Shown here one piece after another: positions 414 to 60,981 of a stretch of 64,000 bases of DNA; within the stretch, counting starts at the first letter, position 1; every line of letters begins with the position of its first letter. The DNA comes from Spirochaetota bacterium (GTDB lineage: Bacteria > Spirochaetota > UBA4802 > JAFGDQ01). Position numbers and translations under genes: made by a program. The stretch lies in the NCBI GenBank assembly GCA_034190085.1, contig JAXHTS010000015.1, forward strand, positions 1-64,000, read 5' to 3'. The notes beneath the pieces are model-generated. The model ran no database searches. It had not been told where the DNA came from and was given only the letters and a program-made list of their open reading frames with translations.

Positions 414-2179
414 ATGAAACGGGGGAGATTTGTTTTACATTATCTTGCGTTAGGTGCTATTTGGATGTGCGCAGGCAATTATTTAGGATGCTCCTGCTCG
501 GATTCATCTAGCGATCCTGCCTTTTTCCCGCCGTCCGTAGTCGATACCATCGCTCCTACGCCAGGTAGTGCGGTGTCATTCAGCGCCTTTGGCGCCGCAA
601 TCAGGGTAAGCTGGGGAGAAGTGAGTGATGATTCCGGAAGCGATGGCCTAACCAATAAGCTCGTCAGGTCATCATCAGAGATCAGCATCATTGAAGAGGG
701 GGAATGTGTGGATACGGTGCAGGACTATGCTTCATACAGTGGCGTTCCGGTAGAGGAGACAATATTTATCGCAGGGACATATTTTTACAATGTATTAGTG
801 AAGGATGCTGCCGGCAACAGGGCTATATATACGGGCGATTCCTGCGCAATAGTAGATTTGATATATGTTAACATTGACAATGTCAGCGGAATAGAGGATG
901 GTACAAGGGATCATCCTTTTAACACAATTCAGGAGGGTGTTGACGCGGCCACTGAGGGCATGGTGGTTATTCGAGTGATTTTTTCGAGAGGAATAGATAT
1001 GAGCATGAGACTATCATTGTTGATACGAGCAGCCTTGGCGGTGATTTTGGAGCCCCGAATCGGGACGTGTATGGGAATAATAGCGTTATTGCTATAACAA
1101 ATGTTACTGTTGTCGATGGTTTTATTATTAGGGGAGGAGGAGAAGCTTCCTCCGCTATCTTTAATCTATACGATTCCTCCCCAACTATAAAAAATAACAT
1201 AATTGATGGGGGAGAATGTACCGGTTTGTCAGTTTGTGTATACAACGATGGTTCATCTCCAAGTATTTCTGGCAACTAAATAAATAGCGGAAGTGGAGGC
1301 AAATCTTCTGCCGGCATCTTCAATGCTGATTCATCCCCAGGTATTGCTGATAACGAAATAAATGGCGGAATTGGTGGTTTCTTATCTGCTGGTATTGTCA
1401 ACGATGATTCTTCGCCAAGTATTGATAGTAATGAGATTAATGGTGGAAGAGGCGTAGGATCTACGGGCATCTACAATACTAATGGTTCATCCCCAAGTAT
1501 CGCTGGCAACGAAATAGATGGCGGAAGCGGAGGTGAAGCTTCTATTGGTATTGGTAACGAAAGATCGAATTCAACAATACAGAACAATACTATTTTCGGT
1601 GGTAATGGAGGTGGGGAATCATGTGGTATTGCAAATTACGATAATCTCTCATTAACGATACGGAACAATACAATTGATGGAGGCAATGGGGGTAATGAAT
1701 GCCGAGCTATTCAAATCACTGATTCAGCTTCCATTGTAGAAAACAATATCATATTCACATCCGGCGGCGATTCAAGAATTGGCATACATGAAGACACTGA
1801 TGGTGGCGTTTTTCCAGATTCCGACCCATCGTCCCTGCGGAACAACAATATCTTCAATTGCCCAACAGCGCTTTATTGTGACGAAGATGCGACATTCATT
1901 ATCGGTATTGATGAAGTCAATGTCTTAGTCGATATTCCATCGAGCGGAAACATCAGCATTGATCCTGTTTTTGCGGATCGTCCGGGCGGTGATTGGCATC
2001 TAACCGGGAGTTCGCCTGTGGAAGCGCGTCAGGGCGGTCTTGATGGAGCGGCTGAGGGCTGGGGCTTCAGCGTTGATATGGATGGAAATACGCGGACTAA
2101 CCTTACTGAAGGGCCGGATGACTCACCTGTCAACGACGGGGCGGCGGGTTGGTCAATGGGCGCGTATGAGTTTGATTGA
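414..2179 (+). pseudogene. broken surface lipoprotein with right-handed beta-helix repeats
   Basis: The N-terminus is a lipoprotein signal peptide with a lipobox ending in a Cys near residue 26 (YLGC). It is followed by a Ser/Asp-rich linker, an Ig/FnIII-like segment, and a DUF1565-like stretch (DGTRDHPFNTIQEGVDAA) that normally opens a parallel beta-helix. The reading frame then slips near 975-985. The protein continues one frame over (EHETIIVDTSS) as repeated SSPSIxGNEIxGG units. An in-frame TAA at 1277-1279 sits where sister repeats have GAA, so it is a G-to-T nonsense change. Beyond it the frame is open to a TGA at 2177-2179, and the natural end is a GAYEFD-type motif. An intact gene would encode about 590 residues and an outer-membrane or surface beta-helix lipoprotein. 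Ligand unknown. A sequencing error could explain one lesion, but two lesions make decay more likely. Confidence 0.8.
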
Positions 2180-2243
2180 TGGCGCGCTGAGATTTCTATA
2201 AATCCACAGCAGCTTAGTTACATGAATTACAGAGCAAAGCTAA

Positions 2244-2269
2244 AGAGGGGCGCTTGGCCCCTCTTTTTT
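2244..2269 (+). terminator. Rho-independent terminator after the beta-helix gene
   Basis: An 8-bp GC-rich perfect stem (AGAGGGGC / GCCCCTCT) with a 5-nt loop is followed directly by a run of T. It lies about 65 nt beyond the end of the beta-helix reading frame. Confidence 0.85.
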
Positions 2270-2343
2270 CATTAGTTGGATGGTCATTGATGACAATTTC
2301 GTTTAAGTGTGACAAAGGCTTGGTTGTCAATTCTTAACAGAAG

Positions 2344-2370
2344 CAGATTCCTGCATCCGTAGGAATGACA
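2344..2370. repeat. short CATTCC-type palindromic repeat
   Basis: A single imperfect inverted repeat (ATTCCTGCAT...TAGGAATGACAT) of the family seen at 153-205, 30770-30797, 47515-47645 and elsewhere. The rest of 2270-2579 holds no recognisable gene. Confidence 0.6.
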
Positions 2371-2579
2371 TAGGGATTGCTTCTTTTCATTATCTTTCAC
2401 TGATTTTAGCCATGCTTATTTCGTGTAAAAGAAGCGGTTTAATATTTTTATGGAAATGACTCTGTTCCTGGATTGATTGTTATTTCTGCTACAATTTGAA
2501 GGGATATGGATGAAATATCCGATCATTAGGGAGATTAACAACATAAAACGAGAGGACCTAAGATCGTGTAAATAATTAT

Positions 2580-4406
2580 CTATTTTTTCACCTCTATTAC
2601 TTTAATCTCGACTCTTCTGTTTAATTTCCTTCCCTCTTCGGTCAGGTTTGAGGCTGCCTGATTAGCATAACCAAATCCCTTGACATGAGTCCTTTCTCTG
2701 GATATGCCTTTTCCCTTTAGATAATTTGCGATTGCATTAGCCCTCTGTTCAGATAGCCTTAGGTTAAATTCATAAGATCCTGTGCTATCAGTATAACCGG
2801 AAATTTGAATTACAACCTTTGGATTTCTCTTGAGAAAGTTGTAGATATTATGAATCTCATCATAGGAATTCTCTTTCAGTTTTGCTGATCCAATGTCAAA
2901 ATATATATTATTCGCAACAAACGAAAAGCCCTTTGTGACCCTCCCCTTTTTAAGATAGAAGTTTCTTTTCAGGTATTTCTGACCTGCTTTTACATTTACA
3001 TTTTTCCTGTAATAGAGATAATCCATAACGCTTATGGATACTATATACCTTGAGTTCTGCCTCAATGTCGCTCCAAGAAAGCCGTCCGCATAGGTACGCG
3101 TCCTTATTGTCCCCCTCAATTCCTGACCGCCAATCCTCATTATCCTGATTTCGGCCCCCTTTACAGGCTCCTTTGTCTCCTTATCATAGACATGACCTTC
3201 CAATAAGGAAACTGGTCTTGGTTTTACAATAAGATTTTTCACCCTGTATATATAGTTCTTATTGGCAACAGAAAGATTGTGAAATCCCATTTTCCCATTC
3301 CTCGCTATAAGAAGAGGGATATGCTCATTGCGGTATGTGTTTAAGGATTTTATGCTTATGGATTTAGTAGTAAGATATTCATTTTCCTTCCTGATTAGTC
3401 TGGTGCCGTAAATATCAAAGCCGCCCATCCCCTTCATACCATTTGATGAATAATATAGAGTTTCGCCGTCAGGATGTAGAAATAGTGAATACTCATCAAT
3501 AGGCGTGTTAATATTAGCAAGCTTCCTCGGTCTGCTCCACTGGCCGTCATCGCCTCTTGTAGTGGAGTAAATATCCAGACCGTTGTTCTTGTCCGCATCG
3601 GATGAAAAAATTACAGAACTCGCGTCGGAGGTAAAATTGCCATAGCTATTCCAGTCTCCGGGATTCATAGAGCTTATGAAGAGCCACTGAGACCACGTCT
3701 TTTTATGAACACTATATTGTCTCATAAGTACTTTAGCGTGATTCTCCCCTCTTTTTATGCTTGCAAGAGCCTCTCTTCCGTCTATTGAAATTGAAAAGAA
3801 GAGCAGTTCCTTCGCGTTTATTCCTGTCAAAAAGTCGGGTTCTTTATCCATAAGTTTGATTTTGCCCCTTGAAAATGAGTAGGAAAAATACCTCCCCATT
3901 TTCCTGTCATACCCGAGGATTTCCTTCCCATTATGATAAAAAGAGATTAGGATTTTTTCTTCGCTTAGGTTTATCATTTTTGCGTTAATTGGAAGCGGTT
4001 TTGTCTCTTTTAGCTTATCATATAACGCCATTTTGAGCATTATGAGTCTTTGCTCCCTGTTGCTGATTTTGTAGTTGTTAAGAAATTCATCGATCTCCTT
4101 TAACGCTTTTTTGTACATCTTGTTGTTGGCAAGGGATATTATTCTAATATAGGCAACCTCCTTATCCTTTTTTATGGATAGGTATTTTGATGCAATTCTT
4201 CTACTCGAACGGAAGTCCTCTTCCACAAAGTGGATCTTCAATAGCCTTTTCAGTGAGACCAGATCCTTTGGATCCTCCTTTAGCATTCGTTTTAAAATCT
4301 TCACATCATCAGTAAAATCCTCTGACTTGTGATATTCCGTTTCATTTACAGCAGCCTCTGCTGTAATGGAGAATATAATTATTAGCGATAATAGTCTTAA
4401 AAGCAT
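2580..4406 (-). CDS. OmpA-family protein with PD40 propeller and peptidoglycan-binding C-terminus
   Basis: 608 residues. Likely periplasmic, tethering the outer membrane to peptidoglycan. The N-terminus has a signal peptide (about residues 1-18) and a short helical, TPR-like region (about 25-115). Residues about 130-390 look like a TolB/PD40 WD40-like propeller (segments such as HPDGETLYYSSNGMKGMGG). Residues about 400-470 resemble a carboxypeptidase regulatory-like beta-sandwich. Residues about 490-605 are an OmpA C-terminal domain with FDIGSAKL, ISGYTDSTGS and LSEQRANAIANYL, including the conserved Asp and Arg that bind diaminopimelate. The start codon overlaps the end of the upstream TonB-dependent receptor by 10 bp, so the two are probably translationally coupled in a minus-strand operon. 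The combination of helical repeats, PD40 and OmpA is common in Bacteroidetes and spirochaete envelopes, often beside receptors. The partner is unknown. Confidence 0.85.
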   Translation of the reverse strand: MLLRLLSLIIIFSITAEAAVNETEYHKSEDFTDDVKILKRMLKEDPKDLVSLKRLLKIHFVEEDFRSSRRIASKYLSIKKDKEVAYIRIISLANNKMYKKALKEIDEFLNNYKISNREQRLIMLKMALYDKLKETKPLPINAKMINLSEEKILISFYHNGKEILGYDRKMGRYFSYSFSRGKIKLMDKEPDFLTGINAKELLFFSISIDGREALASIKRGENHAKVLMRQYSVHKKTWSQWLFISSMNPGDWNSYGNFTSDASSVIFSSDADKNNGLDIYSTTRGDDGQWSRPRKLANINTPIDEYSLFLHPDGETLYYSSNGMKGMGGFDIYGTRLIRKENEYLTTKSISIKSLNTYRNEHIPLLIARNGKMGFHNLSVANKNYIYRVKNLIVKPRPVSLLEGHVYDKETKEPVKGAEIRIMRIGGQELRGTIRTRTYADGFLGATLRQNSRYIVSISVMDYLYYRKNVNVKAGQKYLKRNFYLKKGRVTKGFSFVANNIYFDIGSAKLKENSYDEIHNIYNFLKRNPKVVIQISGYTDSTGSYEFNLRLSEQRANAIANYLKGKGISRERTHVKGFGYANQAASNLTEEGRKLNRRVEIKVIEVKK

Positions 4407-6652
4407 AACTCTATTCCCAACCAGACGAATACAGGCGGATAATCGGATTGAGATTCAGGATTATCCGGTCCATAAGGTTTATCCTCGTCAAACTTCTGGA
4501 ATAGACGATTCCCCTGATTATAGTAAAAGTTCCACACCTCAATATAGAACCTGCTGTTATTTTTATTTGTATATGTTAATTTCAGATCAAGCCTGTGATG
4601 CGCTGGAAATCTTTTGGCGTTATACACTCCATAGACTGCCTCATGCTCTCCGTTATCCTCTGTTGAACCGATAATGGGCGTGTAGGGAAGGGCGGAATAA
4701 TAATGAAAGATCATTGAGGGAGTCCAGTGGCCGAATGTTGATGCCAGCGTTAGTGTAAGGAGATGAGTCTGGTCGAAGTCGGAAAAATAATCATACTTAT
4801 TGTATCTTTCACTGCTTCTCTTGGAAATGGAATAAGCATAGCTGATCCATCCATAGTAATGTTTATGGCTCCCCTTTATTAGGAACTCAACTCCCTGTGA
4901 TTTTCCTTCCCCCTCAATAGAAAAGGGATTTATCTGTGTTATCTTCTTATATTCGCTGTCATTGATTATATCTGTATTTGCTGAAGATAGATTCTTGTAA
5001 TCATAATGGTACAACTCAACCTGCCCCGTTATTCCTGAGAATAGTCTCGATTTTATCCCCACAATTCCATTAAATGCCTGAGAGTCTGTAAATTTCGGTT
5101 CCGATTCTCCTATATAGTAGTACATATCCGGATGAGCGTGATAGACGCCTCCTCCAGTGTATACCGTGTTCCTTTTATTAATATCCAGTCCACACATACC
5201 CCTATATGAAAAGGATTTATTTGACAGGGGTCCATAGCGCTTATATTTAACTCCCAGGTTTATCCATAGAGGTTTATATTCCGCATAAAACTCAGAGAAA
5301 AGAGAATAGGATGCCCCCTCTATAGGGTATTCTTCTGTGATATTCATGCTGGTATTATCAAATATATCCAGATCTGGAATATCATTTAGGCTGACATTCC
5401 CCTCAATGCCGTCTTTATGAGCAATAATCTCAAAACCCGTTTTAATGTGATAATTCTTCAATTTCGCGTGAAGCGTATGAAATATTCTATATTGAGTTGG
5501 ATTGAACCTCAAAAGTACACCAACCATATCACGATAAACGTCCTCATTTTCAATATAATGTTCCATCTGGTGTATTGAAAGTAGGGTCTTTAAAAATATT
5601 TTTTTGTTTATTAGGTATTCCCATTTTAGGGCCTCAATATTATATCGACTCCTGGTAGTGTAGTCATCGATTGACAGATAATCATCAACGCCAAAGGCAA
5701 TGAAAAATAATCTATGCCTTGAAAAGAGGTTGTATGTTAACTTCAGATAATGATCCTGGAAATAGAGGTCAGTCTCTTCATAATCCGTTATCATATCAAC
5801 ATAAGACCTCCTCCCGGAGAACATGACACTGAGGTTGCTTGTTGGGACAATTGTTACGGATAGAGTGGGGAAAACCGGAATAGCAGGATCAAATATCGCC
5901 CTGCCATGAATGTTCATTTGTTGAGGATCTTTTGTCTTTATTTGAATGATGTTGCCAAGGTTGTCATCATAGAACATGGGGGAGAGCCCCTTAATAACAG
6001 ATGCCCTATCAATGATCTCTTCGTTGACTGATGATATCAGAGGAACGATTGAAGCTAAATAGTGATATGGAAAATCGACGGGCAGATCGTCTATATATAA
6101 CCTATCATGGAGCGGGTTGCCGCCCCTTATTATGGGCACTGTTGCAAGAGCAAATCCTCCACCAATGCCTGGGAGTGTCTGCAGAAGATGAAGGCTGTCA
6201 CCCGCTCCTCTCATGGGAAGGTCCTTTATGTTCTTCCCCATAATATGCTGCTCTCCGAATCTGTCTTCACGCCTGCTATAGTAGTTTTCTATTTTGTTCA
6301 ATGCATACGATGCCCCTTTTAGTTCAATATTGATATGGAAATTCCTCTTCAATCTTATAGGAATTATCTCTTCTTCATAAGTCGGATGTGAAAAACGCAG
6401 ATGGTATTTCCCCGGTCTAATGCTCTTGAAGACAAATCTGCCCTTTTTGTCTGAATAAGCGATTATCTTCAGTTCTTCTATGCCTACAGTTATCCCCTGC
6501 AGGGCCTTGCCAGATGCTTTATTAACTATGATGCCGGATATATTATAGGTGATATTCTCAGACATGCCTTTATTCCTATTCTCGCTTTCCTGGGATGCAT
6601 AAAGCTGAATCGAAAAGAGTAGACCTATCATGAGTACAATGATCTGCCTCAT
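4397..6652 (-). CDS. TonB-dependent outer-membrane receptor
   Basis: 751 residues. After a signal peptide (about 1-19), residues about 32-110 form a carboxypeptidase regulatory-like domain (ISGIIVNKASGKALQGITV). Residues about 125-230 form a plug domain (LPGIGGGFALATVPIIRGG). The remainder is rich in aromatic beta strands expected of a 22-strand barrel, and it ends in Phe, the usual C-terminal residue of outer-membrane barrels. The start overlaps the stop of the TonB-like gene by 4 bp (ATGA), and its end overlaps the OmpA gene. I see no Fur box, riboswitch or substrate-specific motif, so the ligand cannot be named. An N-terminal beta-sandwich is usual for SusC-like and related receptors, but no SusD-like partner is present. 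Confidence 0.88.
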   Translation of the reverse strand: MRQIIVLMIGLLFSIQLYASQESENRNKGMSENITYNISGIIVNKASGKALQGITVGIEELKIIAYSDKKGRFVFKSIRPGKYHLRFSHPTYEEEIIPIRLKRNFHINIELKGASYALNKIENYYSRREDRFGEQHIMGKNIKDLPMRGAGDSLHLLQTLPGIGGGFALATVPIIRGGNPLHDRLYIDDLPVDFPYHYLASIVPLISSVNEEIIDRASVIKGLSPMFYDDNLGNIIQIKTKDPQQMNIHGRAIFDPAIPVFPTLSVTIVPTSNLSVMFSGRRSYVDMITDYEETDLYFQDHYLKLTYNLFSRHRLFFIAFGVDDYLSIDDYTTRSRYNIEALKWEYLINKKIFLKTLLSIHQMEHYIENEDVYRDMVGVLLRFNPTQYRIFHTLHAKLKNYHIKTGFEIIAHKDGIEGNVSLNDIPDLDIFDNTSMNITEEYPIEGASYSLFSEFYAEYKPLWINLGVKYKRYGPLSNKSFSYRGMCGLDINKRNTVYTGGGVYHAHPDMYYYIGESEPKFTDSQAFNGIVGIKSRLFSGITGQVELYHYDYKNLSSANTDIINDSEYKKITQINPFSIEGEGKSQGVEFLIKGSHKHYYGWISYAYSISKRSSERYNKYDYFSDFDQTHLLTLTLASTFGHWTPSMIFHYYSALPYTPIIGSTEDNGEHEAVYGVYNAKRFPAHHRLDLKLTYTNKNNSRFYIEVWNFYYNQGNRLFQKFDEDKPYGPDNPESQSDYPPVFVWLGIELCF

Positions 6653-7104
6653 AATCTTTTTTTTCCGACAAAGGTGATTCGCACGTAGACTTCAGTCTTA
6701 TGGCTATATCCGGCGATATATCCGGGCTTCAATTTAATGCCTTTAAAAATCCTTTCTGCTATTTCGTCTAAACCCAATCCGGCCCTCTTAACTATTTTAT
6801 GTGAGTTGATCCTCCCTCTTTTGTCTAATTGAGCATGGATGATTGTCGTGCCCTCAATATTCGAGATAATATAGATATCGTCAATGTCATGAGTAACGGA
6901 TTCGATAATATGCGGTTTTTCAATCTCAATATGCAATCTGTAATGGGCATTTATGTTATCAATGGTATATTTTTTTGATGCATCCTCATAATTAAACATT
7001 GTGTTAACTGAGGTTCTATATGGGCGTTCTATTATTTCATCCTCTAATATAATGCTTTGCAGGGCGCAATTTCCGATAAATAATAATACCAATAGAATTC
7101 TCAT
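6649..7104 (-). CDS. small exported protein with TonB C-terminal-like domain
   Basis: 151 residues. The N-terminus is a hydrophobic signal or anchor (about 1-16). The C-terminal 80 residues (GTTIIHAQLDKRGRINSHKI ... GLDEIAERIFKGIKLKPGYI) follow the beta-alpha-beta pattern of TonB/TolA C-terminal domains, with the conserved KPG-like turn. Known TonB proteins carry a long proline-rich linker and need ExbB/ExbD. Here the linker is missing and neither ExbB nor ExbD lies nearby. It sits directly upstream of, and overlaps, the receptor gene, so it is probably dedicated to that receptor. Whether it transduces energy or only binds the receptor plug is not visible from sequence. Confidence 0.65.
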   Translation of the reverse strand: MRILLVLLFIGNCALQSIILEDEIIERPYRTSVNTMFNYEDASKKYTIDNINAHYRLHIEIEKPHIIESVTHDIDDIYIISNIEGTTIIHAQLDKRGRINSHKIVKRAGLGLDEIAERIFKGIKLKPGYIAGYSHKTEVYVRITFVGKKRL

Positions 7105-7122
7105 CTACGCTATTCCTCCCAT

Positions 7123-7971
7123 TCAATTATCCCTTAGGTTGTATTTAAAATTTGGCGGGTTATAAATAAACTCCAGTCCAATATAGGCGGCCCTGGTGGA
7201 TGCGCTGAGGTCTACATTGGCCCCTGCATAGTCGCCCTTATAGGTAATCTGATTAACTTCAGGGGCGAATTTTAAGAGACAGGATGCATTATATGGCTCA
7301 TACTGAATCCCGATCCCTACAGAAAAACCTGCGCTTATGGAATTATCCCTTTCCTTGTCAATTATTATGTCAGATGATAGATCGGTTATCTTATACATTC
7401 CCAGGAATAGGTCGTAATTAAAGGCAAATTCGAAATCGCTCCTTAAACGATAGCTATGAAATCCGTAATATCCAATAAGATAGCCTATTCCCCTTGCTTC
7501 CGTGCCGCTTATATCAAAATTGAGGCTCATCATCTTTCCGCCAATATAGAGCCAGCTAAAGGATGTGTCTCCTGATGAGCTAAATCTTTTGCCAATTTTT
7601 AGATCAAGGAATGTTGAATCACCGGATATTATAGTCCTTGAATATTGATTTGGCTCTTCAATCGTCTGATTTTTGATTGATGCTTTAAAGTAGCTGAATT
7701 CACTTTGAATGGACTTGTAAAAGTATCCAAGGGTGACTCTGTTTCCAGAATATGATTTCAGTGAATTATTATCCCCCTCATTGCTAGAGATGGATCCTAT
7801 CGCTCTTGAGCTATATGGAGCCTTTAGGTTTCCGAAGCCAAAGGGCGCATAGAAAAGTTTTAAAATTGGTCCGTGTTGACAAACAGGGCGTGCTGATAAA
7901 TCCAGCGTAGCTGCATGATAAATAATTATTATTGAATAGAATAATTTGTATTTTGAAATATGAATAGTCAT
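7123..7971 (-). CDS. putative outer-membrane beta-barrel protein
   Basis: 282 residues and not a family I can name. It has an N-terminal hydrophobic export signal (about residues 8-28), then alternating amphipathic, aromatic-rich strands separated by polar turns, as in 8- to 12-strand porin-like barrels. It is the first gene of the minus-strand envelope operon and ends 18 bp before the TonB-like gene. It could be the outer-membrane partner of the receptor and OmpA proteins or an independent small porin. Positions 7972-8222 upstream hold no gene. Confidence 0.6.
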   Translation of the reverse strand: MTIHISKYKLFYSIIIIYHAATLDLSARPVCQHGPILKLFYAPFGFGNLKAPYSSRAIGSISSNEGDNNSLKSYSGNRVTLGYFYKSIQSEFSYFKASIKNQTIEEPNQYSRTIISGDSTFLDLKIGKRFSSSGDTSFSWLYIGGKMMSLNFDISGTEARGIGYLIGYYGFHSYRLRSDFEFAFNYDLFLGMYKITDLSSDIIIDKERDNSISAGFSVGIGIQYEPYNASCLLKFAPEVNQITYKGDYAGANVDLSASTRAAYIGLEFIYNPPNFKYNLRDN

Positions 7972-8222
7972 AGGTTGGTAGTATGAGGGGCGAGCATTGT
8001 GTTAAATAAATTGAGGGGTATTATGCTAAATAGGTATCTGTTATTTGCCACCACAGTTGATGTTTATCAAATATATTTGATTGCGACTAAAATATCTATA
8101 TTCCTTGTAAGAAGATAAGCAGGGTGGAAATTATCAAAGTAAGAAAATATAGGGATTATACTATGATAATAATATTTGAGAAACTCCTTTTTGAGCGTGT
8201 AGCCATTGAACACAAAAGCCTG

Positions 8223-9167
8223 TTATTTCCGTCCTATAATGAGTTGCCATGTGGAATCTGATAGGTTCTCGACCCTTAAATCTCTAAATCCCGTCCCTTT
8301 AAGCCATTCATAATACTCTTCCCTTGAATATACATCTCCCTTAGGACTCTGTGTTATCATATGAAGAGCCAGGGTTGCTCCCCTATAACTCTCTCCCCTG
8401 AGATTGTCAAATATTACGATCAATCCTTTATCGTGAAGATGCTTATAACACATTTCAATTATTCTAACATTATCCTCAGGAGATTGACCATGGCATAGGT
8501 TGCCCAAAAAGGCAATATCATAGGGCCCTTTAGGTAATTCCTTAGTGGCATCACCGGTTTGCACTTCAATATTTGTGATCCGGGAAAGTTCATCGGCCAT
8601 TACCTGCATGGATTCCGGTAGATCATAAACTATTGTATTAATTCCTCTTTGAGCAAAGACCTTTGCGATCGTTCCAGGAGCCCCGCCAATATCCGCAACT
8701 ATTTTTGCTTCAGGCAGATTCTCAAGACAAATGTTCACCACTTCAGGAGCAATTCTCTTCTTCCAGGGTGAATCCATTCCTTTAATGAAGTCGCTTATTG
8801 AAAAGTTTTTATAGCTGGACTTATCAGGCTCCCCATGCTTTAAGACATATGGAAGAGTCTTCCATGGATTTATGAGATAAAGCAAAAAAAGCCAGAAATC
8901 CCCCTCATAATCCTGGCCCCCTTCATCAACTAATCGTTCATATATCTCATGTGGTACTGAATATACTCCATTATCTATTGTCAGATAACTCATCTCAGCA
9001 AGGGCCTCTAATAATACCCAGGTAGATCTTGCATCAAAATTCATCCTTTTTGCAATGCCCTCATAAGTGTCGGGTCTCTGGTGTAACTCTTTTATTATGC
9101 CGATCCTATGCGCTTGGCCTACAAATATGAGTTCTTCAAGATGTTTTTGGAGTTCTCTTATTCTCAC
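8223..9167 (-). CDS. SAM-dependent O-methyltransferase with winged-helix dimerisation domain
   Basis: 314 residues. Residues about 1-80 form a winged-helix dimerisation domain (IGIIKELHQRPDTYEGIAKR). Residues about 150-310 are a class I methyltransferase fold with motif I VADIGGAPGTIAKVF and a following acidic residue in IVYDLPESMQVM. This is the architecture of the acetylserotonin O-methyltransferase/CrtF/BchU group, which methylates hydroxyls of small aromatic or carotenoid-like compounds. The catalytic His seen in plant enzymes may correspond to the His in LGNLCHGQSPED. It neighbours a second methyltransferase and a glycosyltransferase on the same strand, suggesting tailoring of a glycosylated lipid or secondary metabolite. 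Substrate unknown. Confidence 0.82.
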   Translation of the reverse strand: MRIRELQKHLEELIFVGQAHRIGIIKELHQRPDTYEGIAKRMNFDARSTWVLLEALAEMSYLTIDNGVYSVPHEIYERLVDEGGQDYEGDFWLFLLYLINPWKTLPYVLKHGEPDKSSYKNFSISDFIKGMDSPWKKRIAPEVVNICLENLPEAKIVADIGGAPGTIAKVFAQRGINTIVYDLPESMQVMADELSRITNIEVQTGDATKELPKGPYDIAFLGNLCHGQSPEDNVRIIEMCYKHLHDKGLIVIFDNLRGESYRGATLALHMITQSPKGDVYSREEYYEWLKGTGFRDLRVENLSDSTWQLIIGRK

Positions 9168-9205
9168 GATTCTCCTTTTATGCTCTTTTGGTAGGATTTA
9201 ACAGA

Positions 9206-9910
9206 CTACTTTTTATAGGCATACACAACCATGCTCTTTGGGAAAAAAAAATCAAAAAAACTCTCTATTTTTTTCATTAAATTTGATTGCATGGTTAGGA
9301 CTAAAAAATTTTTATATGTCTTGGTAATAACATGATCTTCTAAATGAAGCCCCACAACACATCTGATCAGCCAATATATGGCATGAAAGGAATGTTTAAA
9401 TCTGATGTTGTATATCTCCAGATTATTATTCTTCATTATTTTTATAAGCTTTCCAGGAAGATACTTTCGTATATGCCCTCCTGGAGAGGTAAAATATTCA
9501 TCAGTTATTAGGCCATATAAGTATTCACTAAAGGTAGTAGGAACAGTTATGACAATTTTACCCCCATTCTTGAGGGTTCTAACGAGTTCCTTGCAAGCCA
9601 GATCGTCGTCAGTTACATGCTCCATTACCTCAGAACATATTATTCTATCAAATGTTTTTTCTTTAAATGGTAGATCTAATGCATTTCCAATATGGACCTG
9701 AAATCTACCACCATCTGATTTTCGATCTTTTTCATTTATATGGGTTAATGTATAGCGGGCTTTTCTCAAAGAGGCTAAATCTAGATCCATGCTGTAAACA
9801 TTTGCTCCCTGTAACACGCATTCAATGGAGTGACGACCTTCACCACATCCGGCATCAAGGATAACATCGCCTACATTGACATCGAATATGTCAAAATCCA
9901 CCGTTAGCAC
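9206..9910 (-). CDS. class I SAM-dependent methyltransferase (Methyltransf_11 type)
   Basis: 234 residues. Motif I is VILDAGCGEGRHSIE at about residues 16-30, followed by an acidic SAM-ribose binder in VYSMDLDLASL and the motif IV-like ICSEVMEHV. The C-terminal third is hydrophobic and basic, which is common in methyltransferases acting on membrane lipids or quinone precursors. The start overlaps the end of the upstream GT4 glycosyltransferase by 20 bp, so the two are translationally linked and probably modify the same glycan or glycolipid. The specific substrate cannot be read from the sequence. Confidence 0.82.
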   Translation of the reverse strand: MLTVDFDIFDVNVGDVILDAGCGEGRHSIECVLQGANVYSMDLDLASLRKARYTLTHINEKDRKSDGGRFQVHIGNALDLPFKEKTFDRIICSEVMEHVTDDDLACKELVRTLKNGGKIVITVPTTFSEYLYGLITDEYFTSPGGHIRKYLPGKLIKIMKNNNLEIYNIRFKHSFHAIYWLIRCVVGLHLEDHVITKTYKNFLVLTMQSNLMKKIESFFDFFFPKSMVVYAYKK

Positions 9911-11135
9911 CTATTACCTCCTCATAGACGTTAACCATCTCCTTTGCCGCATTCTCCCATGTAAATTTTTTTAACACTCTCTTGCGGGCTATTTTGCCCA
10001 TCTTTTTTCTAAATTGTGGATTCTCAATTAAGAAATCGATTGCCTTTGCTATTGCTCCAGCATCCCGTGGGGGAACAAGATATGCTGTCTCAAGGTGTTC
10101 TCCTATTACCTCTGGAAGGGCTCCTCCAGTTGTCGCTATTACTGGCAACTCACATGCCATTGCCTCAACAGCAGGAAAACCAAATCCCTCATAAAGGGAT
10201 GGACATACCGCAATTTCTGTCTGAGAATACAGCTCTACAAGTTTATCTATAGGGATCTTCCCAGTAAATTTCACTCTATCCTCAATGCCAAACTTTTTTA
10301 TCCAACGGGGCACGCTACTCCTGCTTGGTGTTCCGCCGTCAACTATTGTAAGATTCATCTTATGCTTTGTAAGGGTGAGCGCCTTTAAGAGATATATTAT
10401 TCCCTTTTTCCTATCTTCAACATTCCCGACAAAAATGAGGCTATTCTTCTTCTTCTTAATTCCCTTTATGGGGTAAAAGATGCTTGCGTCCATTCCATTA
10501 TAGATAATGCTCTGCTTGCTTAAAGGCACGCCAAATGCCTTGTTTATTTCAATCGAGGAGTCATGAGATACGGTTATTATTTTATTCATCCTATTAGATA
10601 CTATCTTCTGCATAAGAAGCGGGTAGTATAGTATCCTTTTTACTTTCAAACCAAAATTTGATGGATACTCAAACCAAATGCTCCTGTCTATTGATAGAGG
10701 ATGGTGAAGTGTGGAAATAAAGGGGATGCCAAATCTTTTCATTAGTAATAAGCCATACCCTAAACACTGATTGTCGTGTATTATATCAAAACTATTTTCT
10801 TTTAATAATTCCCGCAATTTAAGGTATGCCCTTAAGGAAAAAGTCTCCATCTCGGGAAATACGCCAAATTTGGAAGAAATAAATTCATAAAAGTTGAATG
10901 GCTGAAATGTAGAGAATGGTTTATGATTCTTAATGTAATTCTTCTTAACATTGAAATAATTATGATTACTCACCCTATGCAGGGTTACTCCCTCCATCTC
11001 AAAGGGATATGGAGGTCCAACTATTGCATGAACCTCATGTCCAAGCTTAACCAACTCACGAGCTACATACATTAAGTAAATTCCCTGCCCGCCACAATAT
11101 GGATTCCCTCTATAACTCAATAAACATATCTTCAT
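9891..11135 (-). CDS. GT4-family glycosyltransferase (GT-B fold)
   Basis: 414 residues. The N-terminal Rossmann half begins MKICLLSYRGNPYCGGQGIY with the usual glycine-rich turn. The C-terminal nucleotide-sugar half has the family signature PSLYEGFGFPAVEAMACELP followed by TTGGALPEV, including the E-x7-E arrangement of retaining GT4 enzymes. It should transfer a hexose from a nucleotide-sugar to a lipid or glycan at the cytoplasmic face of the membrane. Its 3' end overlaps a methyltransferase gene by 20 bp. The acceptor and sugar are unknown. Confidence 0.9.
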   Translation of the reverse strand: MKICLLSYRGNPYCGGQGIYLMYVARELVKLGHEVHAIVGPPYPFEMEGVTLHRVSNHNYFNVKKNYIKNHKPFSTFQPFNFYEFISSKFGVFPEMETFSLRAYLKLRELLKENSFDIIHDNQCLGYGLLLMKRFGIPFISTLHHPLSIDRSIWFEYPSNFGLKVKRILYYPLLMQKIVSNRMNKIITVSHDSSIEINKAFGVPLSKQSIIYNGMDASIFYPIKGIKKKKNSLIFVGNVEDRKKGIIYLLKALTLTKHKMNLTIVDGGTPSRSSVPRWIKKFGIEDRVKFTGKIPIDKLVELYSQTEIAVCPSLYEGFGFPAVEAMACELPVIATTGGALPEVIGEHLETAYLVPPRDAGAIAKAIDFLIENPQFRKKMGKIARKRVLKKFTWENAAKEMVNVYEEVIGANGGF

Positions 11136-28225: not shown

Positions 28226-28351
28226 GCTAACCTAAATCCAACAAAGATAACTGAATTCCATAGAAATCCTGATGATAATGATAAGCTTATCGGCCAATAT
28301 TGGTATGATGATCAAGGGTTCCGGGTACGCAAGCTTGCTAACAGGCAGATT

Positions 28352-29503
28352 GTGGGTGAAACCCGTCAGGTTGAGATTCTTTATCCTTCTATGTACTTTG
28401 GCATCGAAAAACATAGGGACGAACAGGGTATGCTTATTGATGATACTACCTATGCTGTTAACAATATCTACCTGAACGGCGTGCGTGTTGCTGCTGTTAT
28501 TCCATCCGGCGATGCCAGATATTATTTGACTGATCAGGTTGACTCCGTTAAGGTTATTGTTGATGACAACGGTTTGCCTGTAACACGCATGGAGTACCTG
28601 CCTTACGGCGAGACTTGGTTCCAGGAAGGGGATGAGAATAATGCGCCAAAGTACAATTCGCAGGAGCTGGATAAAGAAACCGGGTATTATTTCTACAATG
28701 CAAGGCACTATGATCCGGAGATCGTGCGGTTTGTTACGTCGGATACGGCGATTGATGGAGTGTTTGATACGCAGGGGTGGAATAGATTTTCTTACACTAA
28801 AGGCAATCCTATCCTATACAAAGATCCTACCGGACATTTTTCAATACTTGCAGTGCTTGTGATAGGTGATTCGATTTCTAAAGGAGTCTCAAAAGACATT
28901 TATGCTGCTAATGCAGGCAGTGACAGCGGAGATCCTGCAAAAGCAAATGTTGAGAATGATTTACAAAAAGCAAAGGGCAGTGGTGATAGAACAACTGGAA
29001 ATTCTGCGGGGAAGGAACCTGATGTAACTGTAACAAGTACGATTGAAGGGAATTTGTATGATGATAGCGGTAATGTGGTTGGAATGTATGGGAAGCAGGA
29101 AATATTTTATCGCAACAGAGCGGGTGAAATTGAAACTGATGTAGTTGATTATGTTGAATGGAGAGAGGACAATCCTAATGCAATTGAAGAAGAAAAACAG
29201 CAAAAACCTTATGAGCATCCGGCAGCACCCGGAATATATAAAATGAAAGAAGCAAAATATGGAAATAAAATTGAAATTGAACATCCAGAGGATCCTGGAG
29301 ATGATCCAAAACTAAAAGTAAAATGGCATAGATATGGTAGATCAGAAGGTTGCATAATAAGTTCTGATACAGACGCGGGAGATCAAATACGAGAAGATGT
29401 TAAAAATAGGGTTAAAGAAGGTGAAAATTTGACAATTCAATTAGAGGTTATTGATAAAAGAAATGAATTTATTGAAAAGTTGGAGGCTCCGTTGCCTTAT
29501 TAA
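28352..29503 (+). CDS. truncated Rhs/YD-repeat protein with C-terminal candidate peptidoglycan-acting toxin domain
   Basis: 383 residues from a GTG. The homologous frame is open upstream to 28226, so the gene is a 5'-truncated tail of a normally 1000+ residue Rhs protein. YD-type sequence (IGQYWYDDQGFRVRKL upstream, then YYLTDQVDSVKVIVDD) leads to the Rhs core end RFVTSDTAIDGVFDTQGWNR, GNPILYKDPTG. After this junction the sequence is polymorphic, as in Rhs toxin tips. The last 110 residues (HPAAPGIYKMKE ... WHRYGRSEGCIIS) resemble L,D-transpeptidase/Tlde1 (DUF2778) domains, whose catalytic Cys lies in S-x-G-C-I. The toxin assignment is inference. A candidate immunity gene follows 31 bp later. 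Without its N-terminus and a signal the fragment may be a silent tip cassette. Confidence 0.7.
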   Translation: MGETRQVEILYPSMYFGIEKHRDEQGMLIDDTTYAVNNIYLNGVRVAAVIPSGDARYYLTDQVDSVKVIVDDNGLPVTRMEYLPYGETWFQEGDENNAPKYNSQELDKETGYYFYNARHYDPEIVRFVTSDTAIDGVFDTQGWNRFSYTKGNPILYKDPTGHFSILAVLVIGDSISKGVSKDIYAANAGSDSGDPAKANVENDLQKAKGSGDRTTGNSAGKEPDVTVTSTIEGNLYDDSGNVVGMYGKQEIFYRNRAGEIETDVVDYVEWREDNPNAIEEEKQQKPYEHPAAPGIYKMKEAKYGNKIEIEHPEDPGDDPKLKVKWHRYGRSEGCIISSDTDAGDQIREDVKNRVKEGENLTIQLEVIDKRNEFIEKLEAPLPY

Positions 29504-29534
29504 AATTAATCGAACTAAGTGGAGAGGTAGATAG

Positions 29535-30041
29535 ATGAGAAAATTATTAATTGTATTATCACTATTTATAACATATATGATATATATTGACTGTCAAATA
29601 TTAAGTTCGGTGGAAAAAATAATTTGGAAACATGGCATAGCTATAATTAATGATAAAGCAAAATATATTGATGCAATAAGATTAGACCAACGAACTATGG
29701 TATTAACAAAAGACTATATCAATAAAGGTAATAAGACTTTCACAAAAAATATATTAAAGTTTGGTCAACTTTGTTGGCGTTCAAGTAATAAGCTTATAGT
29801 ATATGATACAGAAAAAGATAATCCTTTTGATTCAATAACAGGTGATAAATATAGCTATAAAATTAAAAACAATACAATGTATATAACAAAAAATAATAAG
29901 GAATGGGATAAATTAGAGATTAAAATTATTAATGAAAAACCTCAACAAGTACCGAAATGGGGAGTTCCTATATATATGACAATACATCTAAAATGTAAAT
30001 GGTTTGAAGGTGAATATGCAATAATAGGAACTACTGGATAA
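29535..30041 (+). CDS. exported protein, candidate immunity factor for the Rhs tip
   Basis: 168 residues; no family recognised. It has an N-terminal signal peptide (about 1-20) with a Cys at residue 20 that could be a lipidation site, then a compact beta-rich, Lys-rich domain. A good GGAGAGG ribosome binding site precedes the ATG. Its place, 31 bp after the variable toxin tip on the same strand, is where Rhs immunity genes sit. Export to the periplasm would fit a toxin that attacks peptidoglycan. Both points are inference from position and signal peptide. Confidence 0.5.
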   Translation: MRKLLIVLSLFITYMIYIDCQILSSVEKIIWKHGIAIINDKAKYIDAIRLDQRTMVLTKDYINKGNKTFTKNILKFGQLCWRSSNKLIVYDTEKDNPFDSITGDKYSYKIKNNTMYITKNNKEWDKLEIKIINEKPQQVPKWGVPIYMTIHLKCKWFEGEYAIIGTTG

Positions 30042-31158: not shown

Positions 31159-32219
31159 CTAAAAATATTCCTTCAATTTCATTGATTCCCAGAAATCATG
31201 CCATCTATCTTCAAAATATTTACATCTCAGCCATGTCATTGAATTTGCATGAGACAGTGTCCATCTCATTCCAGCCTCTTTTCATCTATTGGCAACAATA
31301 TATGTATTTGCACTTTCAATAGTTCCACTTCCAATATAATAATCATTTTCTCTAAACTTATCATATCGCATAGAATTTTTATTGTTAAAAAAAATATCCC
31401 CTCAATTCCCATATTGCTGTCTGATTACGTTTTCTTGACATCCCTTCTTTATCCAGAAATTTTATCACTTCAACTACTTTGCCATCCCATAATTGTTCTT
31501 TATAGGGAACCTCTATTAATTAAAAATATTTTGTTGCCAGCCTGTGCAAACACCTGATTCCACAGGGTTTGTGAATAAGGGTATTGTTAGAAATTTAATT
31601 AATAGAGGTTCCCTATAGTTATTTACCTACTTCTTCGCATTTCAAGGTATTCTTTTCTCTGAAAAGAGCATTCGTCGTTTTACAGAGGTAATCAACCATC
31701 ATGTACCAATCAAGTATATGAATCGCCTTTGAGAAATATTCTTCTTTAATTTTACTGATCCAGGTTGCTCTATCTGTTAAAAGAATAACCTTTTTGGCTG
31801 AATGATATTCCTTCTTTTTAGCCTGGGCATAAAACATCTTTTTAAAATTTTCCACTCCTTCTCCTATTGAAGCAGTAAATCGTTTATTCTTTAATTCTAT
31901 TTTTTCTTTTCCATTTTTCGATATTTTCTGTACAATATCATCCCTTGTGTGCACTAAACTAGACTTCATCTCTTTGAAATCACGCTCGCCATCCCCCTTT
32001 ATTGGAACCATTGAGCTAACAACATGCAGATATAATCTTTCTATATCTCTTTTTTCTTTCTCAACTGATTCAGATCTCCTTTCTTTTTTTGCTGCTTTTT
32101 ATACTATTTTGTCCCAATTCGATGAGTCATATCATTTAAACAGGTCTCAGTTATTTCGACAGATAATGTATTATGTAAAAATTCCCGCGCATGTTCAAAG
32201 GGCATAAATATGCCAAATT
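31159..32219 (-). pseudogene. ISKra4-like transposase, decayed and split by a MITE
   Basis: Minus-strand pieces fit an ISKra4-family transposase. The N-terminal piece near 32030-32215 reads MPFEHAREFLHNTLSVEITE. The longest intact piece (31619-32011) contains VILLTDRATWISKIKEEYFS and AIHILDWYMMVDYL. The C-terminal piece near 31200-31350 reads YYIGSGTIESANTYIVANR, then a TGA, then AGMRWTLSHANS. Frameshifts and stops separate the pieces. A 109-bp MITE at 31505-31613 interrupts the gene; removing it restores a frame reading YKEQLWDGKVVEVIKFL. No IS ends were identified. The copy is non-functional. Confidence 0.8.
31504..31614. mobile_element. 109-bp MITE, copy 1, inside the transposase pseudogene
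   Basis: The element is 31505-31613, with 20-bp perfect terminal inverted repeats beginning GGGAACCTCTATTAATTAAA. It is flanked on both sides by TATA (31501-31504 and 31614-31617), a 4-bp target duplication. The interior matches the copy at 35937-36045, with no difference that I could find. It has no coding capacity, so it must have been moved by a transposase in trans. Confidence 0.9.
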
Positions 32220-45055: not shown

Positions 45056-47083
45056 ATGACAGACAAAAAAACTCACAAGCCTGTCTACATTATAAGCGAC
45101 AGTCCGAAAATGAATTCCGACCAATTTGGTTTTAACGCCTATTCCAAAACTATTGCGGAGCTTATCGCAAATAAAGATAATAAGACACCGCTTGTTATCG
45201 GCATTTACGGACCCTGGGGATCAGGCAAAACAACATTGATGCAGACCACCAGATACCGACTTGATCCAAGGAATGAAAAGAATAAAAGATTAGAAAAAAA
45301 TAATGAATTCAAAGATAAAAAAATTTATCGAAAATGCAGAACTGTCTGGTTTCAGGCATGGAAATATAAAAATGAAGATGAAATACTGGCTGCATTGATT
45401 GAAGAGATATTCAAAACCATGGAGCAGGATAATTTCTTTCAATTATGCAAAGCAAAAATTCAAGAACTTACTGACAGGATTAAAACATCTAAAATTACAG
45501 GAGATTTGTCAAAACTTGTTGCAGGAGTTAATATATCGGAATTTTTTTCGGAAATGAAATATAAAGAAAAACTCGGTTTTTATGATATATTTCAGGAGTT
45601 CTTTGACGACCTCCTTTGGACATATCTGAATTGGAGACCGAAAGGAAAAGAATCAGAAAAGCCGGATGATACCAAAGCTGCGCTGATTATTTTCATTGAT
45701 GACCTTGACCGCTGCCCTGAACCGAGAATTCTGAACGTGCTTGAGACCATCAAGTTATTCATGGATAAAAAGGGATGCGTGTTTGTAATTGGCGCTGATA
45801 ACGATATTATTGAAAAAGCTCTCAAAAAAACTTATGATAGCGATGCGGTAAAATTTATGGATAAGATCGTTCAGGTAACCTTCAACCTGCCGAAGTTTAC
45901 AAATATTGATTTTGAGTTATTCTTGGAAAAACTTGTTCTTGCTAATATGGATGATGTAACGCCGCATCTTCCGCTCATTCTGCCTGCAATGCAGGATAAC
46001 CCGCGACGACTTAAGCGTTTCTTGAATAATCTGAATCTGGTTGCTGGTCTCTTAAGAAACAGAAATATCGATGATATTGAGTTTAGACATGTGCTGTTCT
46101 GGAATATTATTGATTACCGCTACCCACGTCTTAGGGATGATATTAGAGGTAATCCTGATAATTTAGATGAACTCAAAAAAGAGATTAAGAGGGTTCAAGA
46201 AGCGCTCGGAGACGATACAGAGCGCTGGATTATTCCATCAGAGATTCCTGAAAAGGCTCCCTCCTCACTTCAGCAGTATATTAATCAGAAGGTTCTGGTT
46301 GATATTATACTCAAATTTGACATTGAAAGGGATAAGCTTGTACAATTGATAACCATGAGCGGAGTTGTCGAGAGCGCAAAATATAATGAGGATAAGAAAG
46401 ACACTGAAGACCAGTTTGATTTCGGCATAATGGCAAAAATAGATGCTGCTACTTTCAAATATGGAGATGATAAGAGAGAAAAAAAGATTGATCAACCTTA
46501 CGAGATTGATATCTATTCTGTTACCAATGCGCAATATGAAGAATTTATTAAGGCTGGAGGATATAGAAATGACAAATACTGGAGTGAAGAAGGATTTAAT
46601 TGGAGGAATCGCGGTAATGTTATCCAACCAAAATATTGGAATGATCCAAAATGGAGCCAAGCGGACTGCCCTGTTGTAGGGGTAAACTTTTACGAGGCTG
46701 AGGCATATGCAAAATGGGCGCATAAAAGGCTGCCAACGGAGATAGAGTGGGAGCGCGCTGCCAGAGGGACCGACGGCCGGGAATATCCATGGGGAGACGA
46801 ATTTGATCGTGAGCTTTGCAATACACGAGAGTCTGGTCATGGGAAGACAACGAGAGTGACACTTTATCCAAAAGGCAGAAGCCCGGCAGGCTGTTATGAC
46901 ATGGCCGGTAATGTCTGGGAGTGGACGTCAAGCTGGTCTGACAAGGATAAAGATAGCTATGCCTTGCGCGGTGGCTCGTGGAGCGGTGGGCAGGGCGACT
47001 GTCGCTGTGCAGCTCGCCTCGACGGCGTCCCGCTCGATAGGTACATCGTTGTTGGATTTCGTTGCGCCAGGGCTCAATTGTAA
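45056..47083 (+). CDS. KAP-family P-loop NTPase fused to an FGE/C-type-lectin-like domain; putative DGR target protein
   Basis: 675 residues, with an AGGAGGG box 8 nt before the ATG. Residues about 20-340 form a KAP NTPase: Walker A GPWGSGKTT (52-60), Walker B FIDDLDRCPE with Asp215/Asp216, and the KAP-type FVIGADNDIIEKAL. No membrane helices are seen. After a helical linker (about 340-455), residues about 455-675 are a formylglycine-generating-enzyme (FGE-sulfatase) domain (YDMAGNVWEWTSSW, RLPTEIEWERAARG). That fold serves as the C-type-lectin-like variable domain of many DGR target proteins. The last 40 codons (46961-47080) are adenine-poor and GC-rich and carry the signature of a variable repeat. 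A hairpin and an avd-like gene follow. By family inference this is a diversified recognition receptor with an NTPase effector, probably cytosolic. Confidence 0.85.
   Translation: MTDKKTHKPVYIISDSPKMNSDQFGFNAYSKTIAELIANKDNKTPLVIGIYGPWGSGKTTLMQTTRYRLDPRNEKNKRLEKNNEFKDKKIYRKCRTVWFQAWKYKNEDEILAALIEEIFKTMEQDNFFQLCKAKIQELTDRIKTSKITGDLSKLVAGVNISEFFSEMKYKEKLGFYDIFQEFFDDLLWTYLNWRPKGKESEKPDDTKAALIIFIDDLDRCPEPRILNVLETIKLFMDKKGCVFVIGADNDIIEKALKKTYDSDAVKFMDKIVQVTFNLPKFTNIDFELFLEKLVLANMDDVTPHLPLILPAMQDNPRRLKRFLNNLNLVAGLLRNRNIDDIEFRHVLFWNIIDYRYPRLRDDIRGNPDNLDELKKEIKRVQEALGDDTERWIIPSEIPEKAPSSLQQYINQKVLVDIILKFDIERDKLVQLITMSGVVESAKYNEDKKDTEDQFDFGIMAKIDAATFKYGDDKREKKIDQPYEIDIYSVTNAQYEEFIKAGGYRNDKYWSEEGFNWRNRGNVIQPKYWNDPKWSQADCPVVGVNFYEAEAYAKWAHKRLPTEIEWERAARGTDGREYPWGDEFDRELCNTRESGHGKTTRVTLYPKGRSPAGCYDMAGNVWEWTSSWSDKDKDSYALRGGSWSGGQGDCRCAARLDGVPLDRYIVVGFRCARAQL
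46961..47080 (+). other. candidate DGR variable repeat (VR) in the FGE domain
   Basis: Fifteen positions in residues 643-665 (643-645, 647-648, 653, 655-658, 660-661, 663-665) sit where FGE-type DGR proteins vary. Fourteen of these codons end in C or T. That is the pattern expected if a template carries AAC/AAT codons whose adenines have been replaced. From 46970 to 47080 (111 nt) I count 13 A and 71 G+C (64%), against an AT-rich surrounding. Framework codons (GGS W, C-R-C, R, P, GFR) are retained. No template copy is visible in this window. Confidence 0.75.
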
Positions 47084-60577: not shown

Positions 60578-60981
60578 TTAAGCAACATATTTCATTATTG
60601 AATCAGATGACTCATATTCTTCTGGACTTTTATAGTCAAGAAAAGAATGAATCCTCTGTCCATTATAAAAGACTTCAATATATTCAAAAATAGATTCCTG
60701 TGCTTCTTTTCTGGTCTTATAATTTCTTTATAGACTCCCTCCATCTTTAATGTTGAGAAAAAACTGTCAGCACATGCATTATCCCAGCAATCCCCCTTTC
60801 TACTCATGCTCTGAACCATTATATATGTTTTCAAATCCTCTCTAAATGATTCAGATGCATACTGAATTCCTCTATCTGAATGAAAAATCAATCCAGGATT
60901 TGGTTTCCTATGAGCAACAGTCATAGTCAGTGCATTTATAGCAAGATCAGATCTAAAACAGCGAAATATCACAAGACGCAA
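60578..60981 (-). pseudogene. IS3-family transposase (orfB) remnant
   Basis: The minus strand encodes the IS3 integrase core PGLIFHSDRGIQYASESF, then SRKGDCWDNACADSFFSTLK, with the DDE residues Asp and Glu in place. A one-base shift near 60722 changes the frame. The correct continuation is [35 protein letters not shown], ending at a TAA (60578-60580). The 5' half of orfB and orfA are absent. Non-functional. Confidence 0.85.

What the first reader, a model, noticed from the sequence alone, without database searches (positions are those of the whole stretch)
28226..30041. Orphan Rhs tip with candidate L,D-transpeptidase-like toxin and exported immunity protein
The Rhs frame has no start, so only the tip remains. 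Its last 110 residues carry an S-E-G-C-I motif and a PAAPGIY motif like Tlde1/DUF2778 domains, which act on peptidoglycan. The next gene encodes a signal-peptide-bearing protein of unknown family, where an immunity protein belongs. A periplasmic immunity protein fits a peptidoglycan target. The toxin-immunity match is my inference.
Basis: partly seen in the sequence, partly recalled or inferred. Interest (0 to 1): 0.6.

Follow-up and report, generated by a model that had tools for sequence, protein, structure and literature searches.

The report
Orphan Rhs wall-cutting toxin with immunity
A spirochaete genome carries a cut-off Rhs gene end whose last 167 amino acids look like a distant relative of bacterial cell-wall cysteine enzymes, paired with an exported protein that recurs beside the same toxin elsewhere and most likely protects the cell; it is a new variant of a known kind of bacterial weapon.

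Summary
A 425-codon Rhs frame (28226-29503) starts abruptly inside the Rhs core and is the only Rhs core found in this Spirochaetota genome. A sister genus has a full-length version (2,824 aa) with a 73% identical core.

The last 167 residues form a discrete toxin domain with four relatives, all in Spirochaetota genomes, on different carriers: another Rhs tip, a short non-Rhs toxin, a 3,539-residue frame and a 309-residue frame. EHP and H-x4-S-x-G-C are invariant, and the Cys is the only one in each domain.

The next gene is a new exported family. Homologues lie directly behind the toxin in two other genomes, which upgrades toxin-immunity from inference to conserved linkage.

The L,D-transpeptidase reading is supported but should be refined. 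His-Cys spacing (8), no Arg after the Cys, profile comparison and the best PDB match point to the DpaA/YafK hydrolase branch. Tlde1 has spacing 10 and SHGC, and its model scores below cut-off. The domain most likely hydrolyses a bond in peptidoglycan stem peptides. Here it is probably silent unless recombined.

Rhs L,D-peptidase toxins were described in 2012, so this is a new variant of a known kind. Activity is untested.

The parts
28226..28999 (+). 5'-truncated Rhs core plus linker (homologous core 28265-28837, DPTG junction about 28826-28837)
   Evidence: TIGR03696 1.4e-18 and 28595-28837; 73% identity over 191 aa to residues 2367-2557 of a 2824-aa protein in a sister genus
29000..29503 (+). 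C-terminal toxin domain (167 aa), distant YkuD/DpaA-like
   Evidence: four relatives on different carriers; hhalign and Foldseek results
29213..29221 (+). invariant EHP of the toxin family
   Evidence: alignment of five members
29327..29329 (+). predicted catalytic His110 of the domain
   Evidence: invariant in five members; aligns with the His of DpaA/YafK-type, DUF5675 and YkuD proteins
29342..29353 (+). S-E-G-C with predicted nucleophile Cys118, the only Cys in the domain
   Evidence: S, G and C invariant, single Cys in each member
29521..29527 (+). ribosome-binding site GGAGAGG, 7 bases before the immunity ATG
   Evidence: read directly
29535..30041 (+). exported immunity protein candidate (168 aa), new family
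   Evidence: homologues adjacent to the toxin in G013 and G069, orphan in G006 and G011
29535..29603 (+). predicted N-terminal export signal of the immunity protein
   Evidence: hydrophobic N-terminus in all five homologues, a lipobox LSSC in L004; helix 2-23 in the model

Best explanation
This is an orphan polymorphic-toxin cassette: a displaced Rhs C-terminus with its own immunity gene. The last 167 residues form a cysteine hydrolase with a divergent L,D-transpeptidase (YkuD) fold of the DpaA/YafK type. Shown: a single invariant Cys118 and an invariant His110 with DpaA-like spacing, and a conserved partner gene. Inferred: when carried outside by a full-length Rhs protein, the domain reaches the periplasm of a neighbouring cell and breaks an amide bond at the third residue of peptidoglycan stem peptides or an attached protein, weakening the wall. 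The exported immunity protein is inferred to bind and block it in the periplasm of the owner. In this genome the toxin fragment has no N-terminus or signal, so it is inferred to be silent until it recombines with a full-length gene, while the immunity gene can be translated by itself.
For: Truncated Rhs core, the only one found in the genome. Toxin domain found on several different carriers, as expected of a C-terminal cassette. Immunity homologue directly behind the toxin in G013 and G069, orphan copies in G006 and G011. All five immunity homologues have N-terminal signals, one a lipobox. H-x4-S-x-G-C with one Cys per domain; same spacing in DpaA, IHGDCVSIGC. hhalign to two YafK-type spirochaete proteins: probability 64, E 6.6e-5, no shuffle of 100 as high. 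The toxin profile also picks out a YafK-type protein, L082, weakly. AlphaFold pLDDT 76.8, pTM 0.77, with DpaA as best PDB match (E 0.011, probability 0.95) and a DUF5675 phage protein at 2.8e-4. One sister member, L004, matches YkuD at 0.0052. In G069 the toxin lies in an array with two M74 murein endopeptidase tips. No Arg follows the Cys, as in DpaA and unlike many transpeptidases (PMC10653827). Orphan Rhs toxins that need recombination are documented (PMC3967940).
Against: No family model reaches its cut-off on the window domain. Structural match TM-scores are low (0.36 to DpaA, 0.42 to DUF5675). The alignments are shallow (4-5 sequences). Parts of the domain (residues 62-68, 99-105) are predicted with low confidence. 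No substrate evidence exists. The genome shows no full-length Rhs with which to recombine, although it is only about 96% complete.
Confidence: 0.7

Rival explanations
1. Same fold and pairing, but the domain acts as a transpeptidase or exchanger (as Tlde1a does with D-amino acids), blocking wall cross-linking without hydrolysing bonds as its main activity.
For: Weak PF10908 matches centred on the motif in two members. Tlde1a has both carboxypeptidase and exchange activities (PMC9638812).
Against: His-Cys spacing 8, not 10; SEGC, not SHGC; no Arg after the Cys; profile and fold closest to the hydrolase DpaA.
Confidence: 0.15
2. The tip is a decaying relic with no future use; only the immunity gene is kept, to protect against neighbours that still deploy the toxin. 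(This concerns the present use of the fragment and can be true together with the best explanation of what the domain is.)
For: No start or export signal; no full-length Rhs found in this genome; orphan immunity homologues without a toxin exist in G006 and G011.
Against: The 425-codon frame is intact and all family-invariant residues are kept.
Confidence: 0.25
3. The domain is a cysteine enzyme of another kind that happens to carry S-E-G-C, for example a periplasmic protease of proteins.
For: Family models fail on the window domain; TM-scores are low.
Against: The His-Cys register aligns with three YkuD-like or related families, each above 95-100 shuffles; secondary structure after the Cys (strand, helix, strand) fits.
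Confidence: 0.1

Closest known systems
L,D-peptidase Rhs polymorphic toxins (Zhang et al. 2012, PMC3482391)
   Same: Rhs carrier, C-terminal L,D-peptidase (YkuD-like) domain, linked immunity gene, peptidoglycan as proposed target
   Different: I could not compare sequences directly. The window domain scores below every current YkuD-type model, and its immunity family has no Pfam entry.
DpaA / YafK / LdtF (YkuD family amidase)
   Same: H-x4-S-x-G-C spacing, no Arg after the Cys, best PDB fold match, best profile comparison
   Different: DpaA is a housekeeping periplasmic enzyme that detaches Braun's lipoprotein (PMC8263019). This is a toxin tip with an immunity gene; SIGC is SEGC; the EHP motif is a family feature here.
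Tlde1 / DUF2778 (PF10908)
   Same: Antibacterial L,D-transpeptidase-fold toxin with a secreted immunity protein; weak local similarity around the motif
   Different: Spacing 10 and SHGC in Tlde1a; T6SS delivery; model far below cut-off here
DUF5675 (PF18925)
   Same: Foldseek match 2.8e-4; His and Cys align
   Different: Longer His-Cys spacing (H-x-G-N...T-x-G-C); not a toxin tip in the examples seen; only two papers that merely mention it were found
Orphan Rhs toxin-immunity modules (Koskiniemi et al. 2014, PMC3967940)
   Same: Rhs fragment with part of the core, no start, linked immunity gene
   Different: There the orphan lies downstream of a main rhs gene; here no main gene is found in the genome.

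Membership tests
Polymorphic toxin, orphan Rhs cassette | Rhs-associated core ending at a junction after which sequence is variable | tested here: met
   TIGR03696 1.4e-18; the core aligns to DPTGH, then diverges from the sister-genus protein
Polymorphic toxin, orphan Rhs cassette | Toxin domain occurs on unrelated carriers | tested here: met
   Rhs tips, a non-Rhs 428-aa protein, a 3539-aa frame and a 309-aa frame
Polymorphic toxin, orphan Rhs cassette | Dedicated immunity gene immediately downstream, co-inherited | tested here: met
   Homologue adjacent in three genomes including this one
Polymorphic toxin, orphan Rhs cassette | Toxicity and specific neutralisation | not testable with these tools
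   Needs expression assays
YkuD / L,D-transpeptidase superfamily | Curated model PF03734 over its cut-off | tested here: not met
   No match for the window domain; sister member L004 17.8 bits against 23.4
YkuD / L,D-transpeptidase superfamily | Catalytic His and [S/T]-x-G-C Cys, both conserved | tested here: met
   Invariant in five members, one Cys each
YkuD / L,D-transpeptidase superfamily | YkuD fold | tested here: inconclusive
   Model pTM 0.77; DpaA top hit, E 0.011, TM 0.36
DpaA/YafK branch | H-x4-S-x-G-C spacing with no Arg after the Cys | tested here: met
DpaA/YafK branch | NF040599 model match | tested here: not met
   No hit for the window toxin domain or for three relatives
Tlde1 (PF10908) | Model over its cut-off of 30.1 bits | tested here: not met
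   15.0 bits
Tlde1 (PF10908) | H121...SHGC131 signature (spacing 10, second His) | tested here: not met
   Spacing 8, Glu or Lys in place of the second His (PMC9638812)
Tlde1 (PF10908) | Delivery by T6SS | not tested
   T6SS genes were not searched; the related full-length carrier has a lipoprotein-like N-terminus and SpvB/FG-GAP/TcdB-mid domains

The most novel reading that the evidence does not exclude
A YafK/DpaA-type amide hydrolase has been turned into an interbacterial toxin family specific to Spirochaetota, with its own lipoprotein or periplasmic immunity family. Its substrate is not the classic L,D bond but the link between the third stem residue and an attached protein or cross-link.
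Probability: 0.3. Interest if true: 0.55.

Novelty: new variant of a known kind. Interest (0 to 1): 0.38.

Why it matters
Toxins aimed at peptidoglycan with the L,D-transpeptidase fold are known mainly as Tlde1 in proteobacteria, plus a brief 2012 note on Rhs proteins. This family shows a different branch of that fold (DpaA-like spacing) used as a mobile toxin tip in spirochaetes. It also brings an unnamed immunity family that can be tested directly. Current family models miss both proteins, so similar pairs in other genomes will be annotated as hypothetical.

Tried and rejected
The PDB sequence search with the toxin profile gave only pesticin, E 0.4, by non-catalytic similarity. The immunity profile against the PDB gave only ribosomal proteins at chance level, and its fold search gave nothing below 0.1 (best potempin E, 0.11). 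Viral contigs and plasmids held no relative. In the genome-contig scan, L009 is the same contig as L003, and the planctomycete hit L010 is a chance match inside an FG-GAP-type protein. Profile hits L014/L083 are a sugar transferase, a chance match. Tlde1 members were not found in 198 spirochaete genomes, but no control rang either, so that absence proves nothing. PAAPGIY was rejected as a family motif.

Full report
What is in the sequence. The window is positions 1-64000 of a 121-kb contig in a 4.27-Mb genome. A genome of the same order, G013, is identified through its matching 4,899-base contig as Spirochaetia bacterium UBA2205, so the organism belongs to the Spirochaetota. The frame 28226-29503 is open for 425 codons but has no 5' end. 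It carries a Rhs-associated core (TIGR03696, 1.4e-18). It is the only such core found in the genome, and nothing Rhs-like lies elsewhere in the window. A genome of the same family, G001, has a 2,824-residue protein whose core is 73% identical over 191 residues, beginning at window position 28265 and ending at the DPTGH junction. That protein begins with a lipoprotein-like signal and carries SpvB, FG-GAP and TcdB-mid domains, so the parental carrier is of the SpvB/TcdB type. Tips without a long carrier are frequent in the order.

The toxin domain. After the core and a linker, residues 259-425 (29000-29500) form a separate domain. Searches of the phylum gave four relatives: G013 (43% identity, another Rhs tip), G069 (a 428-residue protein with a different N-terminus), G042 (the end of a 3,539-residue frame) and G045 (a 309-residue frame). 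G045's profile E-value of 0.009 per genome is not significant by itself over 251 genomes; I accept it because it keeps every invariant motif and sits before two exported proteins. Thirteen columns are invariant, among them EHP and H-x4-S-x-G-C. Each domain has exactly one Cys.

What fold and activity. Pfam gives only sub-threshold matches: Tlde1_dom 15.0 bits (cut-off 30.1) for the window domain and YkuD 17.8 bits (cut-off 23.4) for the G069 member. I therefore compared profiles. Against two YafK-type proteins from spirochaetes (L071, which matches the DpaA/YafK model NF040599 at 5e-23; and L082, at 2.3e-7; both below that equivalog model's own cut-off) hhalign gives probability 64 and E 6.6e-5. 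Against DUF5675 it gives E 0.0013 and against ordinary YkuD proteins 0.0028. None of 95-100 column-shuffled controls reached the real score in any of the three, and His110 and Cys118 fall on the catalytic His and Cys. The spacing is the clearest guide to the sub-type. DpaA has IHGDCVSIGC, His to Cys 8; all five toxins have 8; Tlde1a has H121 and C131, 10 apart, with SHGC (PMC9638812). The Arg that many transpeptidases carry after the Cys is missing, as in DpaA (PMC10653827). AlphaFold gives pLDDT 76.8 and pTM 0.77. The best PDB match is DpaA (E 0.011, probability 0.95, TM 0.36) and the best viral match a DUF5675 protein (E 2.8e-4). These are suggestive, not conclusive. I infer a cysteine hydrolase of peptidoglycan stem peptides.

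The partner gene. The ORF 29535-30041 starts 31 bases after the toxin stop, behind GGAGAGG. Homologues follow the toxin directly in G013 and G069, two different carrier contexts, and stand alone in G006 and G011. All five have a hydrophobic N-terminal signal, in G069 with a lipobox. The G045 toxin is followed by two tandem lipoproteins that look like another family. In G069 the toxin sits in an array with two M74 murein endopeptidase tips. Exported partners and wall-enzyme neighbours fit a periplasmic peptidoglycan target. The family has no Pfam entry, and its model (pLDDT 75.4) has no confident structural match.

How it probably works here. Known orphan Rhs toxins lack initiation and export signals and must recombine with a full-length gene to be deployed (PMC3967940). 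By analogy this copy is silent, and only the immunity gene is likely to be made. No recipient gene was found in this genome, which is about 96% complete.

Relation to what is known. Zhang et al. (2012) already reported L,D-peptidase domains on RHS proteins with linked immunity genes (PMC3482391). The finding is thus a divergent, DpaA-like variant of a known kind with a new immunity family. Toxicity, target and neutralisation remain untested.

Noticed in passing
L049 (G069:C1:395000-412000): Array of short toxins, two of which share the N-terminus M[RG]EEEKVETWNTL, interleaved with exported proteins; two tips match Peptidase_M74 and another ends in a second Cys motif, HIGGPDNTWSKGC.
   Followed up: partly
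L084:1078-3144: A relative of the toxin followed by two tandem, similar lipoproteins unrelated by eye to the immunity family studied here.
   Followed up: partly
L042 (G001:C46:21000-32500), 1708-10179: Full-length 2824-aa lipoprotein-like SpvB/FG-GAP/TcdB-mid/Rhs protein; its own C-terminus has a WCN...GHGHVG pattern with no Pfam match.
   Followed up: partly
L047 (G006:C95:94000-112000), 4343-7669: Run of small genes around an orphan immunity homologue, several with export signals or membrane helices, resembling a polyimmunity locus.
   Followed up: no
window 31501-31617: Perfect 24-base inverted repeat with 69 bases between the arms, in the AT-rich stretch downstream of the cassette.
   Followed up: no
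window 45056-47083: Fusion of a KAP P-loop NTPase with a sulfatase-modifying-factor (FGE) domain.
   Followed up: partly
window 60595-60981: Fragment of an IS transposase with an rve integrase core.
   Followed up: no
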